From the IMG/VR virus record IMGVR_UViG_3300017770_000114, positions 1 to 27,984 of that record: a stretch of DNA of 27,984 bases; one strand, 5' to 3'. The DNA comes from a virus. Positions 3,969-27,614 of this stretch are shown here, piece by piece. The translations under genes were made by a program, and so were the position numbers. The number at the start of each line of letters is the position of its first letter. Position 1 is the stretch's first letter. Below the pieces are notes generated by a model. It did not search any database, had not been told where the DNA came from, and saw only the letters and a program-made list of their open reading frames with translations.

Positions 3969-4281
3969 TTGTACAGGTGTAAAAAGATTAGATATATTTA
4001 AGACAGAGGTAAAGAGAGAACCACTTAATCTTCCAGCACCAGAACCTGTGCTGTTAGAAGATTTAAATTTTATTATTATTACTTCAGAAAATGCTGAAGA
4101 AGTATTTAAAAAATTAAAAAAAAAAAATATAGACCCTGTGTTATTTGGTCTCACAGATGATGACTATGAAACTCTTGCTAAAAACTTTGCACAAATAAGA
4201 GCATATATCATAAAACAAAATATAACTTTAGAACAATACAAAGAGTATTACGAATCCCAAACTGAGCAAAAAGATAAATAA
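3898..4281 (+). CDS. Rz1-like o-spanin lipoprotein
   Basis: 127 residues. A basic N-terminus (MLLRSHR), a hydrophobic signal core and the lipobox L22-T-S-C25 predict lipoprotein processing with lipidated Cys25. The mature part begins with a proline-containing linker (PLNLPAPEPVLLED), as in other o-spanins, and continues with an acidic, helical domain. It overlaps the i-spanin gene by 71 bases in a different frame; AAGGAA at about 3887-3892 can serve as Shine-Dalgarno. Similar small lipoproteins with a PLNLP/PEPV motif occur in marine T4-like phages. It would be anchored in the outer membrane and bind the i-spanin C-terminus. Confidence 0.75.
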   Translation: MLLRSHRLILNVLVSLILVTSLTSCTGVKRLDIFKTEVKREPLNLPAPEPVLLEDLNFIIITSENAEEVFKKLKKKNIDPVLFGLTDDDYETLAKNFAQIRAYIIKQNITLEQYKEYYESQTEQKDK

Positions 4282-10394: not shown

Positions 10395-11690
10395 ATGGAC
10401 GTACAAATATATACAACACCAACTTGTGGTTATTGTTTAAACGCAAAGAATTGGTTTAAAGAACATGGAATAGAGTTTAGTGAACACTCACTAGTTAACG
10501 ATGACGATAGACTAGAGTTTTTTCAAAGAGTAAACAATGTAGAAGAAAAATTAGGGAACAATCAACCAGGTGTTATGTCTGTTCCACAAATTTTTATTAA
10601 TGGAGAAAGAATTGGTGGGTTTACAAATCTATTAGAAAACTCTGAAAAGATTTTAAAAAGAAGAGGTGGTGGACTGTATAAGTTTTCTGAAACATACAAA
10701 CCATTTTATTTTCCTTGGGCTGTTGACTTTGTACAGAAACACGAAAAAGTTCATTGGATTGAGGACGAAGTTGATCTATCCGAAGATGTTACTGATTGGA
10801 AAGCTGGAAGAATGACCGAAGTTGAAAAAGACTTTGTAACAAATGTTTTGAGATTGTTTACACAATCAGATGTTGCAGTTGGTCAAAACTATTACGATCA
10901 GTTTATTCCTAAATTTAAAAATAACGAAATAAGAAATATGCTTGGTTCATTTGCATCAAGAGAAGGTATTCATCAAAGAGCATATGCATTACTTAACGAA
11001 ACACTTGGTCTACCAGACGAAGAGTTTCACGCATTCTTAGAATATAAAGAAATGGCAGACAAAGTAGATTTTATGATGGATTCAAATACAAATACTAAAA
11101 GAGGTATGGCACTTGCATTAGCAAAATCTGTTATGAATGAAGGTGTGTCTTTGTTTGCATCGTTTATTATGTTGTTAAACTTTCAAAGATTTGGCAAGAT
11201 GAAAGGATGTGGTAAGATTGTAGAGTGGTCAGTAAGAGACGAGTCAATGCACGTTGAAGGTATTGCACACCTATTCAGAGCATTCTGTTCAGAAAATGCA
11301 TCTATCGTTGACAATGATTTGAAAAAAGAAATCTATGAAATGTCTTCAAAAGTTGTAGACCTAGAAGATAAGTTTATTGATCTTGCATACAAAATGGGTG
11401 AACCACAAGGTCTTCCTAAAGAAGATGTGAAGAATTACATCCGATATATAGCTGATAGAAGACTATTACAATTAGGATTAAAAACAAACTTTAAAGTAAA
11501 AGAAAATCCTATTGCTTGGTTAGAGTGGGTTTTAAATGCAGCTGATCATACTAATTTCTTTGAAAACAGAGTAACAGAATATGAAGTTGCTGGGTTAACA
11601 GGGGATTGGCACGAAGCATATGGCTCACCAAAAGACAGAGTTGTATGTGATGATGATACAGGTACATGTGAAATTAAGGTAGCAGTATAA
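10395..11690 (+). CDS. nrdB: Glutaredoxin-NrdB fusion: ribonucleotide reductase beta subunit
   Basis: 431 residues with two domains. Residues 1-90 form a glutaredoxin: CGYC active site at C11-C14, SVPQIFINGERIGG (cis-Pro loop and GSH-binding GG). Residues 100-420 form a ferritin-like R2 protein with D159, E190-x2-H193 and Y197 in EGIHQRAY (diiron ligands and the tyrosyl-radical position of E. coli Y122), then NEGVSLFASF and RDESMHVEG for the second half of the site. The fused glutaredoxin is well placed to reduce the CVSC tail of NrdA directly. The C-terminus carries a CDDDTGTC motif before the tail that should dock to NrdA. It is the second gene of the nrd pair. Confidence 0.95.
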   Translation: MDVQIYTTPTCGYCLNAKNWFKEHGIEFSEHSLVNDDDRLEFFQRVNNVEEKLGNNQPGVMSVPQIFINGERIGGFTNLLENSEKILKRRGGGLYKFSETYKPFYFPWAVDFVQKHEKVHWIEDEVDLSEDVTDWKAGRMTEVEKDFVTNVLRLFTQSDVAVGQNYYDQFIPKFKNNEIRNMLGSFASREGIHQRAYALLNETLGLPDEEFHAFLEYKEMADKVDFMMDSNTNTKRGMALALAKSVMNEGVSLFASFIMLLNFQRFGKMKGCGKIVEWSVRDESMHVEGIAHLFRAFCSENASIVDNDLKKEIYEMSSKVVDLEDKFIDLAYKMGEPQGLPKEDVKNYIRYIADRRLLQLGLKTNFKVKENPIAWLEWVLNAADHTNFFENRVTEYEVAGLTGDWHEAYGSPKDRVVCDDDTGTCEIKVAV

Positions 11691-18498: not shown

Positions 18499-19053
18499 AT
18501 GCTTAAAAAGTCGATAATTGCCATACTATCAGTATATTGGTTGTTCATGATTGTGGCACCTGCGTTTGCAGAAACTAATACAGTATCATCGACAGTAACA
18601 GGTACAACAACAGTTGATAAAACACCTGGTACAGCATCAGCACCCAATGTAATGGTAAACAATCAAGACGTATGTTCAACAGGTGTATCTGCCGCAGTAC
18701 AAACACAGGTATTAGGTGTCGCAGCTGGAACTACAGTTAGAGATTTAAATTGTGAAAGACTAAAATTATCTAAAGCATTATATGGTATGGGTATGAAAGT
18801 GGCCGCAGTTTCAATGTTATGTCAAGACGCAAGAGTGTTTAATGCAATGGAAATGGCTGGAACACCATGTCCTTACAAAGGCAAAATTGGTTTAGAGGCC
18901 GCAAAAGCATGGGCAGAAGACCCACAGGCAAGACCTGATTACGAGAAGTGGTTAAAAGAAAACAACTTAGAAAAACAAGAAGAGGAATGGAATGATGCTA
19001 AAAAGAAAGCTACTGGCCTTAGTATTTTTGGTTTGTTGTTATTCCTACTCTAA
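18499..19053 (+). CDS. Secreted conserved marine phage protein
   Basis: 184 residues from ATG 18499; an in-frame ATG at 18481 is possible, but GAGGGA at 18484-18489 and the signal peptide favour the inner start. The N-terminus MLKKSIIAILSVYWLFMIVAPAFA is a classical signal peptide with an AFA cleavage site. A Thr/Ser/Pro-rich stretch follows, then a cysteine-containing domain (VCSTGVSAAVQTQVLG, DLNCERLKLSKALYGMGMKVAAVSMLCQDARVF, TPCPYKGKIG) with four cysteines, which suggests disulfides. I recall the same domain in marine T4-like phages without a function. Export to the periplasm or membrane is likely. The next gene overlaps its end by 62 bases. Confidence 0.8.
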   Translation: MLKKSIIAILSVYWLFMIVAPAFAETNTVSSTVTGTTTVDKTPGTASAPNVMVNNQDVCSTGVSAAVQTQVLGVAAGTTVRDLNCERLKLSKALYGMGMKVAAVSMLCQDARVFNAMEMAGTPCPYKGKIGLEAAKAWAEDPQARPDYEKWLKENNLEKQEEEWNDAKKKATGLSIFGLLLFLL

Positions 19054-20797
19054 CGCATACGATCAGCAATATCAAGTAGGTGACACAGGTCCAAATGGTG
19101 GCACAGTTACAGATGTAACCATAACATCAGCAATTACTGACTCAACTTCACAGGTTATCGGTGACTTTATAGAGTACACTGACACTTATCTTTATCAAGA
19201 AACAATTATTGAATCTATTGAAAGTACAACACAAACAACAACTTTAGTATTGCAAGAAACACAAACCTCTAATTTACTTACAACAGAATTACAAGATACT
19301 GGTACAATGACAAATGTTTTTGATTGTAGTACTAAAAATAATTGTTATGGTATGGGAAGTAATGTAGAAATAACTACAGGAAATCAATCAATGAACGGTG
19401 GATCAGCGATTGTAGATTTCGATCTTTCAGAATATAATAATATGACAGAGATAGACTATGGTGGTAAAGTATATTCTCATTCGTCAAACGCTACTGTTCC
19501 TAATTGTAATCAAACTAATGGTGATTGTAAAGATGAATTTAAAGTAACACTAACATTAAAAAATGGTAATAGTGTTGTAGATACTTATGTTCATAATTAT
19601 ACAAATATGAATTGGCAAGGTGTTCAAGACTATGCGTTTAATCAAGATGTATCTAATAAAACTTTTGATGGTGCATCGCTTGAATTTTACGGAATAGACA
19701 GAGGTTATAATACAGGATATTATGGGCCAGGATTTAGTGATGCCTTTCTTCAAGTAACATATTCTCAACTAGTACAACAGATTAATAATATTATTGATTA
19801 CACAATAATGACCACGATCAAACAAACTCAAGAAAATGTAATTGATTCAGTTTACTCACCACAACCAGTGATAGAGTTTGATTTTGAACCAATAGAAATG
19901 GAAGTAGATGTAATTGAATTAAATTTTGAAACATCTACAGATGAAATGATGACTTTTGAAATAGAAATTGTTGAAGTAGAAAACGTTGTAGAAGTAAACA
20001 TGACAACAGAGTTTGGTGGTGAACTAGAAGTAGAAACAATTGAAACAATAGATGTTGTTGAAATTATGGATATGCCTGATACTGCTATGGAAATGGAAAT
20101 GCCAGATATTGATATGCAAATGGCAGAATTAGAAATTGAAATGCCAGAGATAGAAATAAATAGTACTGAATCAGTGGAGGTGACAGTAAGTGAAAACAGC
20201 GCTACAGAAACTACGCCAGAGACTACAGAAATCGAAGTACAAGAGTCCAATAGTGATGCTGAGCAGTCAGTGGAAGACAACGGAGCAACAGACGAAAGTA
20301 CAAGTACTGAACCCGATGTACAATCCGAACCTGAGTCAGAGCAAGAAACTGAGCCTGAAACAGAATCCGAACCAGAATCAGAATCAAGTGACAGAGAAGT
20401 GGATAACGCAAACGAAAGTGAAGACAGAGAAGATTCTAATGGAGAAGTAGAAGAAAAAGAAGAAAAGGAAGAAACAAAAAAAGAAGAAAGTAAAGAAGAA
20501 AAAGTTAAAGCTGCAATCGCAAAAGCAAAACAAAAAGTCGCACAGAAAATACTTGCAAAAATTGTAAGTACAAATGACACAATTGCACTAGATAGCACAA
20601 AACTTGCTTTAATGATTGCATTGTCAGATCAAGATGGTTTTAGCACATACCAACAACTAACATTACAAGATATGGAATTTTATCTAGATGACGGACTACT
20701 TGACGCATATCTACCTACAAATAATATAAGTCAGTATTTTTTATTTGGTGGTTCAGATGTTTTAATGAATGATCTTGTAAATATGCAGTACGAGTAA
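18992..20797 (+). CDS. Exported, highly acidic repeat-like protein (601 aa)
   Basis: 601 residues; ATG ATG at 18992/18995 behind AGAGGA (18981-18986). It has a signal peptide, MLKRKLLALVFLVCCYSYSNA. The N-terminal domain (about 25-285) starts YQVGDTGPNGGTVTDVTITS, is rich in T, S, N and aromatic residues, and looks like a beta-rich surface protein with cysteine pairs. Residues about 290-500 are an extreme low-complexity acidic region (E, M, I, V, then E/T/S/P). A Lys/Glu helix (about 487-523) and a short folded C-terminus follow. The YQVGDTGPNGG start recalls proteins called VrlC in cyanophages, a tentative memory. An antisense frame of 248 codons (19852-20598) is a composition artefact. The function is unknown. 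Confidence 0.85.
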   Translation: MMLKRKLLALVFLVCCYSYSNAYDQQYQVGDTGPNGGTVTDVTITSAITDSTSQVIGDFIEYTDTYLYQETIIESIESTTQTTTLVLQETQTSNLLTTELQDTGTMTNVFDCSTKNNCYGMGSNVEITTGNQSMNGGSAIVDFDLSEYNNMTEIDYGGKVYSHSSNATVPNCNQTNGDCKDEFKVTLTLKNGNSVVDTYVHNYTNMNWQGVQDYAFNQDVSNKTFDGASLEFYGIDRGYNTGYYGPGFSDAFLQVTYSQLVQQINNIIDYTIMTTIKQTQENVIDSVYSPQPVIEFDFEPIEMEVDVIELNFETSTDEMMTFEIEIVEVENVVEVNMTTEFGGELEVETIETIDVVEIMDMPDTAMEMEMPDIDMQMAELEIEMPEIEINSTESVEVTVSENSATETTPETTEIEVQESNSDAEQSVEDNGATDESTSTEPDVQSEPESEQETEPETESEPESESSDREVDNANESEDREDSNGEVEEKEEKEETKKEESKEEKVKAAIAKAKQKVAQKILAKIVSTNDTIALDSTKLALMIALSDQDGFSTYQQLTLQDMEFYLDDGLLDAYLPTNNISQYFLFGGSDVLMNDLVNMQYE

Positions 20798-20798
20798 T

Positions 20799-20806
20799 TA
20801 TAAATA
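20799..20806 (+). promoter_or_regulatory. T4-type late promoter TATAAATA
   Basis: A second exact TATAAATA, starting 2 bases after the preceding stop codon. The next gene begins at 20829 with a GAGAGG Shine-Dalgarno in between, so the leader is about 16 bases. Confidence 0.75.
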
Positions 20807-20828
20807 TAATAGACAAGTAGAGAGGTCA

Positions 20829-21275
20829 ATGATGAAAAAACAAACAGAATTAGAATTTGCTGGTGTAAAAGTAAAAGGAAGTAAGATGCTTCTTATATTA
20901 CCTTTACTCGGGTCAATCATAGGTGCTCTTTGGGGAGGGTTTGTCTTCTATAAAGATTACTTAGATATGAAAGAACAGATTCTAAGTTACACTGCACCAG
21001 ACTTATCAGGTTTTGATAAAAGACTTGAAGTTATGGAATCTGAATTAAATATGATAATGGACGAAGTAACACTAGTTGCAGATGTGGCAAAAGAACTTAA
21101 AAACGATCTTAGACAAGATATTAGAAGAATAGAAAAAATTGTCGAAGATGTAGAACAAAGAGTAAAAGAAGATGCAAGAGAAAATGTTAAAGATTTTAAA
21201 GAACTTAAAGAAGAAGTTGAAAACTCTATTCAAAAAGCGTTAGAAAATCCATTAAACAACATGAGAAAACAATAA
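20829..21275 (+). CDS. Membrane-anchored coiled-coil protein
   Basis: 148 residues; ATG ATG at 20829/20832 after GAGAGG (20819-20824). A short N-terminal cytoplasmic part precedes one TM segment (about 20-42, MLLILPLLGSIIGALWGGFVFY). The rest is a highly charged coiled coil (about 55-148, LEVMESELNMIMDEV... and VEDVEQRVKEDARENVKDFKELKEEVE). The architecture is clear but the function is not. Proteins of this type recur in the late blocks of marine T4-like phages. Confidence 0.8.
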   Translation: MMKKQTELEFAGVKVKGSKMLLILPLLGSIIGALWGGFVFYKDYLDMKEQILSYTAPDLSGFDKRLEVMESELNMIMDEVTLVADVAKELKNDLRQDIRRIEKIVEDVEQRVKEDARENVKDFKELKEEVENSIQKALENPLNNMRKQ

Positions 21276-25490: not shown

Positions 25491-25519
25491 TTGACTTAAT
25501 AGTATATGCTTGATAGTAT
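25491..25519 (+). promoter_or_regulatory. Sigma70-type promoter for the 25546 gene
   Basis: TTGACT at 25491-25496, a 17-base spacer, TAGTAT at 25514-25519, preceded by AACCC. Unlike its relatives it leaves a leader of about 20 bases with a GAGAGAGG Shine-Dalgarno. The palindrome TATAGCTATA (25517-25526) overlaps the -10 end and +1. Confidence 0.7.
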
Positions 25520-25545
25520 AGCTATATAACAAGAGAGAGGTTAAT

Positions 25546-25905
25546 ATGTACAAAGTAGAAAAAACGGCAGAAACACTATTCAACGGAGTTGATAACATGA
25601 TGAACGGTGCCAAAGAAGATTATATTAAATGGTCTACTATGGGTGGCAAAGAGTTAACAGGTTATACAAAAGAACAAGTTGATGGTTGGGACGATAAAAT
25701 CAAAGTAAAAGCTGGACAAAAATACATCAAGATTGTGAGAGACAATTCTGTATTTGCGTTTGTTAATATCAACAATACTAAATTCAAAAAAGGTGATATA
25801 TTTAAACCTGCGGGTTATAACAAACCTGCTTTGAATGCGGCAAGAGGAAATGTTTTAGAAGGTGGATACCACATTCAATGGACAGGTCCTTTATACTTAA
25901 AATAG
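25546..25905 (+). CDS. Small hypothetical protein
   Basis: 119 residues, not recognised. A helical N-terminus (YKVEKTAETLFNGVDNMMNGAKEDYIKW) precedes a probable small beta domain (DKIKVKAGQKYIKIVRDNSVFAFVNINNTKFKKGDIFKPAG, then GYHIQWTGPLYL). The KAGQKYIKIV...GDIFKPAG part resembles a small SH3-like barrel in outline only. It has its own promoter and good Shine-Dalgarno, so it is probably well expressed early. Confidence 0.75.
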   Translation: MYKVEKTAETLFNGVDNMMNGAKEDYIKWSTMGGKELTGYTKEQVDGWDDKIKVKAGQKYIKIVRDNSVFAFVNINNTKFKKGDIFKPAGYNKPALNAARGNVLEGGYHIQWTGPLYLK

Positions 25906-25922
25906 AAAGAGAGGTGTATAAT

Positions 25923-26096
25923 ATGAAAACGTTTTTATTAAGTACTGCGATTTTATCATTAATTATGGCTGTAGGTGCAATCGAAGATTGTGGTGGTCAT
26001 TGTATGGGTCAAGAGAATTGGGCAATGTTCTTTATCATGACAGGTATAGGATTAGTTTCAGGTCTCTTTGGAATATCTTTACAGGATAAACAATAA
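25923..26096 (+). CDS. Two-TM small membrane protein
   Basis: 57 residues from ATG 25923 behind GAGAGG. Two hydrophobic segments (about 3-20, FLLSTAILSLIMAVGA, and 33-51, AMFFIMTGIGLVSGLFGIS) are joined by a short loop with two cysteines (DCGGHC). The first may act as a signal sequence. Its function is unknown. It shares the transcript of the upstream gene, which ends in the RNA structure and terminator below. Confidence 0.7.
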   Translation: MKTFLLSTAILSLIMAVGAIEDCGGHCMGQENWAMFFIMTGIGLVSGLFGISLQDKQ

Positions 26097-26107
26097 AATT
26101 TACGAAT

Positions 26108-26192
26108 TGGGTTATGCGACCTCTCAACCTCATCATCAAAATGCATAACCCATACCCACACTATATTATGAGGTTGACTTGAAAAGTGGGTA
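26108..26192 (+). ncRNA. Predicted intramolecular kissing-hairpin RNA element
   Basis: Three perfect stems interlock. Stem A: TGGGTTATGC (26108-26117) with GCATAACCCA (26143-26152), 10 bp. Stem C: TACCCAC (26153-26159) with GTGGGTA (26186-26192), 7 bp. Stem B: TCAACCTCAT (26124-26133, loop of A) with ATGAGGTTGA (26168-26177, loop of C), 10 bp. The order A-B-A'-C-B'-C' is that of two kissing hairpins. Hairpins A and C abut with no gap, so they can stack. A strong terminator follows. It could be a riboswitch-like attenuator for the 26250 gene, a stable 3' end for the upstream message, or a separate small RNA. I know no family that it clearly matches. Confidence 0.7.
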
Positions 26193-26197
26193 CTATG

Positions 26198-26235
26198 TAG
26201 GGGGGCAACCATTCGGATATGCCCCCCTATTTTTT
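26198..26235 (+). terminator. Strong rho-independent terminator
   Basis: TAGGGGGGC (26198-26206) pairs with GCCCCCCTA (26221-26229), 9 bp, across a 14-base loop. TTTTTT (26230-26235) follows directly. It sits between the kissing-hairpin element and the Shine-Dalgarno (GAGGG) of the 26250 gene. Confidence 0.9.
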
Positions 26236-26249
26236 CTAAAGAGGGAACT

Positions 26250-26558
26250 ATGCCAAAAGTAAAAATTTCACAAAAAGAAAGAGACACAATTTCTCGTAGA
26301 AAACACTATGAGTATATTAAATCTTTAGGTGTCAATATTGACACAGATACAGGTATTATTTCAAATGATTTTTCTGGTTATGATATGCCAGATTATCAAT
26401 CTAATCGATGTTTGATTCCTACCAGTGACAAAATTTCTTATGTATCACCGAAGAAAGCATTACCTAAGTTAGAATTACCAGAGGGAAAGGCAATAAGTAT
26501 AGCATATAACAAGGGAAATTATCAACTCGTAGATAAGGAAGACTTGAAGAATGACTAA
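26250..26558 (+). CDS. Small hypothetical protein
   Basis: 102 residues, not recognised. It is basic in the N-terminal part (MPKVKISQKERDTISRRKHYEYIKSLG) and ends acidic. Hydrophobic content is low and no membrane segment is present. GAGGG at about 26241-26245 supports the ATG. It lies directly behind the terminator, so its expression would depend on read-through or an unrecognised promoter. It overlaps the metallopeptidase gene by 8 bases. Confidence 0.7.
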   Translation: MPKVKISQKERDTISRRKHYEYIKSLGVNIDTDTGIISNDFSGYDMPDYQSNRCLIPTSDKISYVSPKKALPKLELPEGKAISIAYNKGNYQLVDKEDLKND

Positions 26559-27050: not shown

Positions 27051-27614
27051 ATGAATATATTTGAATTACATAAAGACCCAGTTATTTGTTCCGAAATGCA
27101 TTTAGATAAACATGTTGTAAAGATGCCAACAGAGTATTGTCAAATGTTATGTACAGCTCATCGTGTATTAGACGGAACTGAATACATAGGACAAACAAAG
27201 ACTGGTAGACGAGCAAAAAGGTGGAAACTAGATGATGAACGAGAATATAATCTTATGCTCGCTGGACACATCAAACACCCCGATACATTATGGGTAATGA
27301 AGTCAAGATCAAATTACTATAAGTTATTCTTTTTATACATGGCATTACTTGGCGAATACACTTATAGATACGGAAAGAAACATGGTGCAGGTAATTACTC
27401 TTTCTGGTTGCAAAGAGCACCAAATAATATACCTGATATTGGTTTAACTGAACTACCACAATGTATGCCAGATTATTGTAAAACTGATAATGTTATTAAA
27501 GCGTATCATAAATATTATATCAATGAGAAAAAAGGTTTCGCAACGTGGAAAGGCAAAATTAACGCAAGACCAATTCCGTCTTGGTATTTACAGGGGGAAA
27601 ATGGACTGGCATAA
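27051..27614 (+). CDS. Conserved marine T4-like phage protein, unknown function
   Basis: 187 residues. The opening MNIFELHKDPVICSEMHLDKHVVKMPTE, the CTAHRVLDG motif, HPDTLWVMKSRSNYYKLFFLYMALLGEYTYRYGKKH, and the LPQCMPDYCK...AYHKYYINEKK...WKGKINARPIPSWY tail form a pattern I know from many marine phages as a conserved protein without proven function. The conserved H, D, K and R residues suggest an enzyme, possibly acting on nucleic acid. It is first in its transcript and seems leaderless. The next gene begins inside its last codons. Confidence 0.8.
   Translation: MNIFELHKDPVICSEMHLDKHVVKMPTEYCQMLCTAHRVLDGTEYIGQTKTGRRAKRWKLDDEREYNLMLAGHIKHPDTLWVMKSRSNYYKLFFLYMALLGEYTYRYGKKHGAGNYSFWLQRAPNNIPDIGLTELPQCMPDYCKTDNVIKAYHKYYINEKKGFATWKGKINARPIPSWYLQGENGLA

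What the first reader, a model, noticed from the sequence alone, without database searches (positions are those of the whole stretch)
26108..26235. Intramolecular kissing-hairpin RNA with 10-bp kiss plus terminator
Two abutting hairpins (10 bp and 7 bp perfect stems) have loops that are perfectly complementary over 10 bases, giving an A-B-A'-C-B'-C' topology. Chance pairing of this extent in 85 bases of AT-rich DNA is very unlikely. The element is followed within 6 bases by a 9-bp GC terminator and a T-run, then a gene with its own Shine-Dalgarno. This is the layout of a ligand- or protein-controlled attenuator, or of a nuclease-resistant small RNA. I do not recognise it as a known riboswitch class.
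Basis: partly seen in the sequence, partly recalled or inferred. Interest (0 to 1): 0.8.

Follow-up and report, generated by a model that had tools for sequence, protein, structure and literature searches.

The report
Phage RNA with ribosome-site-blocking loop
In uncultured marine T4-like phages, a two-hairpin RNA at the end of a small operon keeps one loop nearly unchanged, and that loop is complementary to the ribosome-binding sites of the operon's own genes, so it probably acts as a small RNA that turns those genes down.

Summary
Two abutting hairpins (10 and 7 bp), 10-nt complementary loops and an intrinsic terminator are where stated, far beyond chance (0 of 458,734 shuffles). It is a real RNA family absent from Rfam: 23 distinct sequences in marine phage contigs. 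Across 14 distinct stem types every stem pair is kept, 14 of 15 through two-sided changes; G-U pairs point to the + strand. Loop 1, ACCUCUC..ACCUC(UC)AUCAUCAA, is almost invariant.

Loop 1 is complementary to Shine-Dalgarno sites of the genes just upstream in the same operon: GAGAGGUU (DUF7717-like and small membrane-protein genes) or AUGAUGAGG(U) in distant phages. The same gene in phages without the RNA lacks this complementarity (16 vs 21 distinct sites, mean -13.2 vs -4.6 kcal/mol), although pairing to the 16S anti-SD is equal.

Best explanation: a phage 3'-UTR small RNA whose anti-Shine-Dalgarno loop represses its own operon and a few other genes. It works like OppZ/CarZ and alpha-proteobacterial aSD-loop sRNAs but is not a member of the latter. 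Attenuator/riboswitch is not supported: no antiterminator, both neighbouring genes dispensable. The kiss is strong in the window's clade, weak or absent in some relatives. Expression and repression are untested.

The parts
26108..26117 (+). Stem A, 5' arm (TGGGTTATGC)
   Evidence: sequence; covariation across 14 distinct stem types, all pairs kept
26118..26142 (+). Loop 1, nearly invariant anti-Shine-Dalgarno loop
   Evidence: invariant core in all homologues; complementary to upstream ribosome-binding sites
26118..26125 (+). Seed GACCTCTC, complement of GAGAGGTT/GAGAGGTC in target ribosome-binding sites
26124..26133 (+). Loop-loop partner B (TCAACCTCAT)
   Evidence: 10 WC pairs with 26168-26177; p=0.0007 against shuffled loop 2
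26143..26152 (+). Stem A, 3' arm (GCATAACCCA)
26153..26159 (+). Stem C, 5' arm (TACCCAC)
26160..26185 (+). Loop 2, carries SD-like ATGAGGTTGA
26168..26177 (+). Loop-loop partner B' (ATGAGGTTGA), resembles the target SD
26186..26192 (+). Stem C, 3' arm (GTGGGTA)
26198..26235 (+). Intrinsic terminator: stem TAGGGGGGC/GCCCCCCTA plus T6
   Evidence: sequence and fold; a terminator-like hairpin in the same place in nearly all homologues
25535..25542 (+). Predicted target 1: SD GAGAGGTT of the DUF7717-like gene (25546-25905)
   Evidence: -13.4 kcal/mol with loop 1; rank 2 of 42 ribosome-binding sites in the window; 16 vs 21 with/without-RNA control
25909..25915 (+). Predicted target 2: SD GAGAGGT of the 57-aa membrane-protein gene (25923-26096)
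   Evidence: rank 3 of 42; 10 of 12 vs 0 of 38 GAGAGGT with/without RNA
20820..20827 (+). Predicted target 3 (trans): SD GAGAGGTC of the 148-aa gene (20829-21275), behind a T4-type late promoter motif TATAAATA at 20799
   Evidence: rank 1 of 42, -16.5 kcal/mol; promoter motif
25546..25905 (+). DUF7717-like gene (119 aa), first predicted target gene of the operon
   Evidence: Pfam PF24835 matches 9 of 12 homologues
25923..26096 (+). 57-aa small hydrophobic protein gene; its stop codon ends 11 nt before stem A
26250..26558 (+). 102-aa gene downstream of the terminator (not required by the RNA)
   Evidence: absent next to the RNA in L119 and the L277 group

Best explanation
The element is the 3' end of a short phage operon and gives a small RNA (or acts as part of the operon mRNA) ending at the intrinsic terminator. 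Stem A displays loop 1, an anti-Shine-Dalgarno antisense loop. Its seed ACCUCUC (in other phages CCUCAUCAU) pairs with the Shine-Dalgarno sites of the genes just upstream, DUF7717-like and the 57-aa membrane protein, and of a few genes elsewhere in the phage, covering the SD and so blocking ribosome entry: a negative feedback loop of the operon on itself. Loop 2 carries an SD-like sequence that pairs with the middle of loop 1 within the same RNA. In the window's clade this leaves most of the GACCUCUC seed free; in the AUGAUGAGG-type phages it competes with the target. Shown: structured RNA, + strand, invariant loop, complementarity to upstream SDs and its association with presence of the RNA. 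Inferred: transcription, processing, repression, and the regulatory role of the loop-loop pairing.
For: Covariation: 100% of 210 cells paired, 14 of 15 pairs with two-sided changes, score 0.971 vs 0.236 in shuffles. Loop 1 core invariant while stems change fully. DUF7717 RBS next to the RNA: 16 distinct sites, mean -13.2 kcal/mol with loop 1, 9 with GAGAGGT and 6 with ATGATGAG; in phages without the RNA nearby 21 distinct sites, mean -4.6, none with either, while pairing to the 16S anti-SD is equal (-7.5 vs -7.0). Same for the 57-aa gene: GAGAGGT in 10 of 12 vs 0 of 38. Within loci the DUF7717 site ranks 1st-3rd of 4-42 RBSs in nearly all. Over 13 loci 30 of 266 RBSs pair >=8 nt with the real loop; 300 shuffled loops give mean 6.2, max 14, and shuffles keeping one ACCTC max 16. 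RBSs of phages without the RNA: 0-1 of 198. In L111 and L055 the DUF7717 gene is replaced by an 84-aa gene but GAGAGGTTAATATG is kept. Further sites 5 kb away (window 20829; L113, L115, L125) argue for trans action. The RNA starts right after the stop codon and ends in a terminator. Known RNAs with this logic exist (PMC7398697; PMC10746234).
Against: No transcript, processing or repression data exist; the phages are uncultured contigs. Loop 1 does not change, so seed and target never covary strictly; the support is enrichment and association. The RBSs are homologous between loci, so counts are not independent, and phages without the RNA form other lineages with other SD styles. In L281 (-8.9 kcal/mol) and L421 (rank 8 of 22) the match is weaker. 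Full-length loop 1 has no unusually stable site in the window as a whole. The loop-loop pairing is 5-6 bp in L117, L416 and L405, and loops 2 of L055 and L093 fit another clade's loop 1 better than their own. Gene starts were taken as first ATG.
Confidence: 0.72

Rival explanations
1. A 3'-end stabiliser: the hairpins, kiss and terminator protect the operon mRNA from exonucleases, and the loop is conserved for tertiary folding or protein binding.
For: Located directly between stop codon and terminator in nearly all homologues; compact structure.
Against: Does not explain why an almost invariant 23-nt loop matches the operon's own SDs, nor why those SDs differ in phages without the RNA.
Confidence: 0.13
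2. Transcription attenuator or riboswitch controlling the downstream 102-aa gene.
For: Layout of structure, terminator, SD and gene.
Against: No antiterminator pairing above 3-4 nt in 7 homologues; downstream gene absent or different in L119 and the L277 group while the RNA stays; terminators exchanged freely.
Confidence: 0.04
3. Loop 1 binds host mRNAs or another phage or host RNA; pairing with the phage's own SDs is a by-product of its SD complementarity.
For: SD-complementary loops can hit many mRNAs; the host is unknown, so host targets could not be searched (inference).
Against: Own-operon sites are 8-10 nt matches ranking at the top of each locus and absent from the same genes in phages without the RNA.
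Confidence: 0.08
4. GAGAGGTTAAT is an operator bound by a phage translational repressor protein, and loop 1 is unrelated to it.
For: The motif is shared by several genes and kept when the gene behind it is swapped.
Against: Distant phages have a different SD (ATGATGAGG) that matches another part of the same loop; complementarity would be coincidence.
Confidence: 0.03

Closest known systems
OppZ and CarZ, 3'-UTR-derived autoregulatory sRNAs of Vibrio cholerae (PMC7398697)
   Same: RNA at the 3' end of an operon, directly after the last stop codon, ending in a terminator, complementary to the translation start region of genes of the same operon
   Different: There RNase E and Hfq dependence and repression are shown by experiment; here untested. 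I know of no covarying double hairpin with complementary loops in them, and they are chromosomal, not phage
Alpha-proteobacterial alpha-r14 / cuckoo-type sRNAs with anti-SD loops, such as NfeR1 (PMC10746234) and CcsR1-4 downstream of a DUF1127 gene (PMC10253847)
   Same: Ultraconserved anti-SD motif in unpaired loops while the stems change freely; seed blocks translation start regions; CcsRs are co-transcribed with a small protein gene
   Different: Motif here is ACCUCUC/CCUCAUCAU, not CCUCCUCCC; only one of two loops carries it and the other is its complement; no DUF1127 gene; found in phages; Rfam models do not match
Phage-encoded sRNAs such as VpdS, PreS, 24B_1, OOP (reviewed in PMC12197685)
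   Same: Phage-encoded regulatory RNA acting by base pairing
   Different: Those discussed are mostly from temperate phages with other targets; none is described with this loop or with pairing to SDs of its own operon (passages read)

Membership tests
Any of 4227 Rfam families | Covariance-model score at gathering threshold | tested here: not met
   0 hits in the window; at E<=10 best is sbrA 15.3 bits vs 45 needed, E=0.99
alpha-r14 / cuckoo aSD sRNAs | CCUCCUCCC motif in hairpin loops | tested here: not met
   Loop 1 is ACCUCUC..ACCUC(UC)AUCAUCAA in all members; motif definition from PMC10746234
alpha-r14 / cuckoo aSD sRNAs | Loop ultraconserved while stems diverge | tested here: met
   Invariant loop core; 14 of 15 stem pairs with two-sided change
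alpha-r14 / cuckoo aSD sRNAs | Several hairpins, each with the motif | tested here: not met
   Loop 2 carries the complement of loop 1, not the motif
3'-UTR-derived autoregulatory sRNA (OppZ/CarZ type) | Lies directly after the last stop codon of the operon and ends in a terminator | tested here: met
3'-UTR-derived autoregulatory sRNA (OppZ/CarZ type) | Complementary to translation start region of its own operon | tested here: met
3'-UTR-derived autoregulatory sRNA (OppZ/CarZ type) | Processed by RNase E, Hfq-dependent, represses its targets | not testable with these tools
   no transcript or protein data for these phages
Attenuator / riboswitch | Mutually exclusive antiterminator pairing | tested here: not met
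   longest pairing with terminator arm 3-4 nt in 7 homologues
Attenuator / riboswitch | Constant association with the regulated downstream gene | tested here: not met
   downstream gene missing or different in L119, L277 group, L405
Type III toxin-antitoxin RNA | Tandem pseudoknot repeats before terminator and toxin gene | tested here: not met
   single non-repeated unit; 102-aa gene dispensable and without family match

The most novel reading that the evidence does not exclude
A phage RNA family in which one molecule carries both an anti-Shine-Dalgarno antisense loop and, in a neighbouring hairpin, a built-in copy of its target that holds the loop in a kissing complex: a self-limited feedback switch for a small regulon, kept across diverging marine phages whose stems have fully changed.
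Probability: 0.35. Interest if true: 0.72.

Novelty: new variant of a known kind. Interest (0 to 1): 0.62.

Why it matters
Few regulatory RNAs are known from marine T4-like phages of heterotrophs. This family gives a concrete regulon with predicted seed and target bases, and it can be tested in E. coli with reporter fusions although the phages are uncultured. It also shows how an unknown RNA can be given a function: compare the ribosome-binding sites of the same gene in phages with and without the RNA. The built-in target copy in loop 2 would be an unusual way to limit an antisense RNA.

Tried and rejected
Rfam at gathering and E<=10: nothing. Trans target for full-length loop 1 over the whole window: no better than shuffled loops; the signal appears only when ribosome-binding sites are examined. 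Relatives in isolated phages by blastn or by protein synteny: none in INPHARED; the parts of HTVC008M, Mosig and Melnitz read do not hold the RNA. Bacterial and archaeal genomes: only chance matches to the loop pattern. MAFFT alignments misplace stem A' by one base and misalign L119, so stem counts were made on an ungapped alignment assembled from the stem and loop pieces. Antiterminator: none. Type III toxin-antitoxin and two-piece tmRNA were considered; no repeats, no tRNA-like part. DUF7717 structure was predicted with good confidence but has no significant PDB match, so the role of the regulated gene stays unknown.

Full report
What is there. Window 26108-26192 holds two abutting perfect hairpins (10 bp, 25-nt loop; 7 bp, 26-nt loop) whose loops share 10 complementary bases, followed after 5 nt by an intrinsic terminator. 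At this strength nothing comparable occurs in 458,734 dinucleotide shuffles of the region or elsewhere in 5.9 Mb-strand of phage DNA. The stop codon of a 57-aa ORF lies just before stem A and a 102-aa ORF begins after the terminator.

It is a real RNA family. Relatives of the neighbouring proteins and pattern scans of virus contigs gave 23 distinct element sequences. The window's clade keeps the element 97.7% identical to L013 while the adjacent 57-aa gene is 57% identical. More distant members (L055, L093, L094, L105, L106, L111, L115, L117, L119, L124, then L277, L421, L436, L405) have different, in part entirely different, stems. On 14 distinct stem types all 210 cells are paired, 14 of 15 pairs change on both sides, and the covariation score is 0.971 against 0.236 in shuffles and at most 0.25 when slid. 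This alignment was assembled by me from stem pieces, so it leans to the structure, but contiguous stems were found independently in each sequence. G-U pairs occur on the + strand and not as A-C, which points to a + strand RNA. Rfam has no match.

Where it lies. The order is conserved: 2OG-Fe(II) oxygenase or another gene, DUF7717-like gene, optional 57-aa membrane-protein gene, RNA with terminator, optional about 93-102-aa gene, metallopeptidase-like gene. L119 and the L277 group lack both optional genes but keep the RNA. So the RNA is not a leader of the 102-aa gene, and it belongs with the upstream operon as its 3' end. No antiterminator was found.

What loop 1 does. Loop 1 hardly changes: ACCUCUC(UC)AACCUC(UC)AUCAUCAA. 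Listing the sequences before each start codon showed a likely reason. The DUF7717-like gene and the 57-aa gene have GAGAGGUU (or C/G at the end) before AUG, the complement of the 5' part of loop 1, in the window and nearly all near relatives; in the L277 group and L405 the DUF7717 gene has AUGAUGAGG(U), the complement of the 3' part, 8-10 bp. Where an 84-aa gene has replaced DUF7717 (L111, L055) the GAGAGGUUAAU-AUG remains.

Controls. (a) Same gene with and without the RNA nearby: mean -13.2 kcal/mol over 16 distinct sites against -4.6 over 21; GAGAGGT or ATGATGAG in 15 of 16 against 0 of 21; pairing with the 16S anti-SD is equal (-7.5, -7.0), so these are not just stronger SDs. (b) For the 57-aa gene 10 of 12 against 0 of 38. 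(c) Within each locus the DUF7717 site ranks first to third among all start sites in nearly all cases (window: 2nd of 42; worst L421: 8th of 22). (d) Shuffled loops reach at most 14-16 sites where the real loop has 30 of 266; phages without the RNA have 0-1 of 198. The loci are related, so these counts are not independent trials. 'Without the RNA' means not within the DNA held.

Other targets. The best site in the window is the 148-aa gene at 20829 (GAGAGGUC, -16.5 kcal/mol), which has its own T4-type late promoter motif at 20799, thus probably a separate transcript; L113, L115, L109 and L125 have GAGAGGUU sites before 50-68-aa genes and similar sites before 90-aa genes about 5 kb from the RNA. 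This suggests action in trans on a small regulon.

The loop-loop pairing. In the window's clade and L105, L111: 9-10 WC pairs (p 0.0004-0.003 against shuffled loop 2). In most others 7-9. In L117, L416 and L405 only 5-6, and loops 2 of L055 and L093 pair better with the loop 1 of another clade. A two-base insertion in loop 1 goes with ATGAGAG in loop 2 in L094, L115 and L124 (7 WC bp with own loop, 6 with the window's type). So the kiss is probable in the window's clade, not proven as a family trait. In the window it overlaps the seed GACCUCUC by two bases only; in the L277 group it covers the seed.

Comparison with the known. It works like 3'-UTR-derived autoregulatory sRNAs (OppZ, CarZ; PMC7398697) and like alpha-proteobacterial sRNAs with ultraconserved anti-SD loops on freely changing stems (NfeR1; PMC10746234; CcsR; PMC10253847). 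It is not a member of the latter by motif or by Rfam. Literature searches found no report of this element, within an open-access library only.

Verdict. Structured RNA on the + strand: about 0.97. Anti-SD small RNA acting on its own operon: 0.72. Kiss functional in the window's clade: about 0.6. All function is inferred from sequence; there are no expression data.

Noticed in passing
L119, minus strand, about 90-130 nt after the start of loop 1 (near 4120-4165 of the locus): A perfect sigma-70 promoter TTGACA-N17-TATAAT overlaps the hairpin that sits in the terminator position, in front of the metallopeptidase-like gene.
   Followed up: no
L093, L094, L117, after the RNA: The same long terminator (GGGCGGGTGCAGGTCTTCGGACATGGGGCTA..AAGCCAACCCGCCC) follows RNAs that differ, while sister phages have short unrelated terminators: terminators seem to be exchanged as modules.
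   Followed up: no
L111 and L055, about 470 nt before the RNA: An 84-aa gene (MYNLKNTKID...) replaces the DUF7717-like gene with the Shine-Dalgarno region kept.
   Followed up: partly
window 10395-11690: NrdB-like protein with an N-terminal thioredoxin-like domain (residues 1-81) fused to the ribonucleotide reductase small subunit.
   Followed up: no
window 18992-20797: 601-aa ORF without any PHROG match or tblastn hit in 50,697 phage records.
   Followed up: no
window 27051-27614: 187-aa protein matching only the first half of phrog_624 (DNA binding protein, 1-159 of 309), near the end of the contig.
   Followed up: no
window 18454 and 20799: T4-type late promoter motifs TATAAATA; the second precedes the best predicted trans target.
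   Followed up: partly
window 25516-25551: The DUF7717 Shine-Dalgarno is predicted to lie in the loop of a weak hairpin (-2.7 kcal/mol), so contact with the RNA could itself be loop to loop.
   Followed up: no
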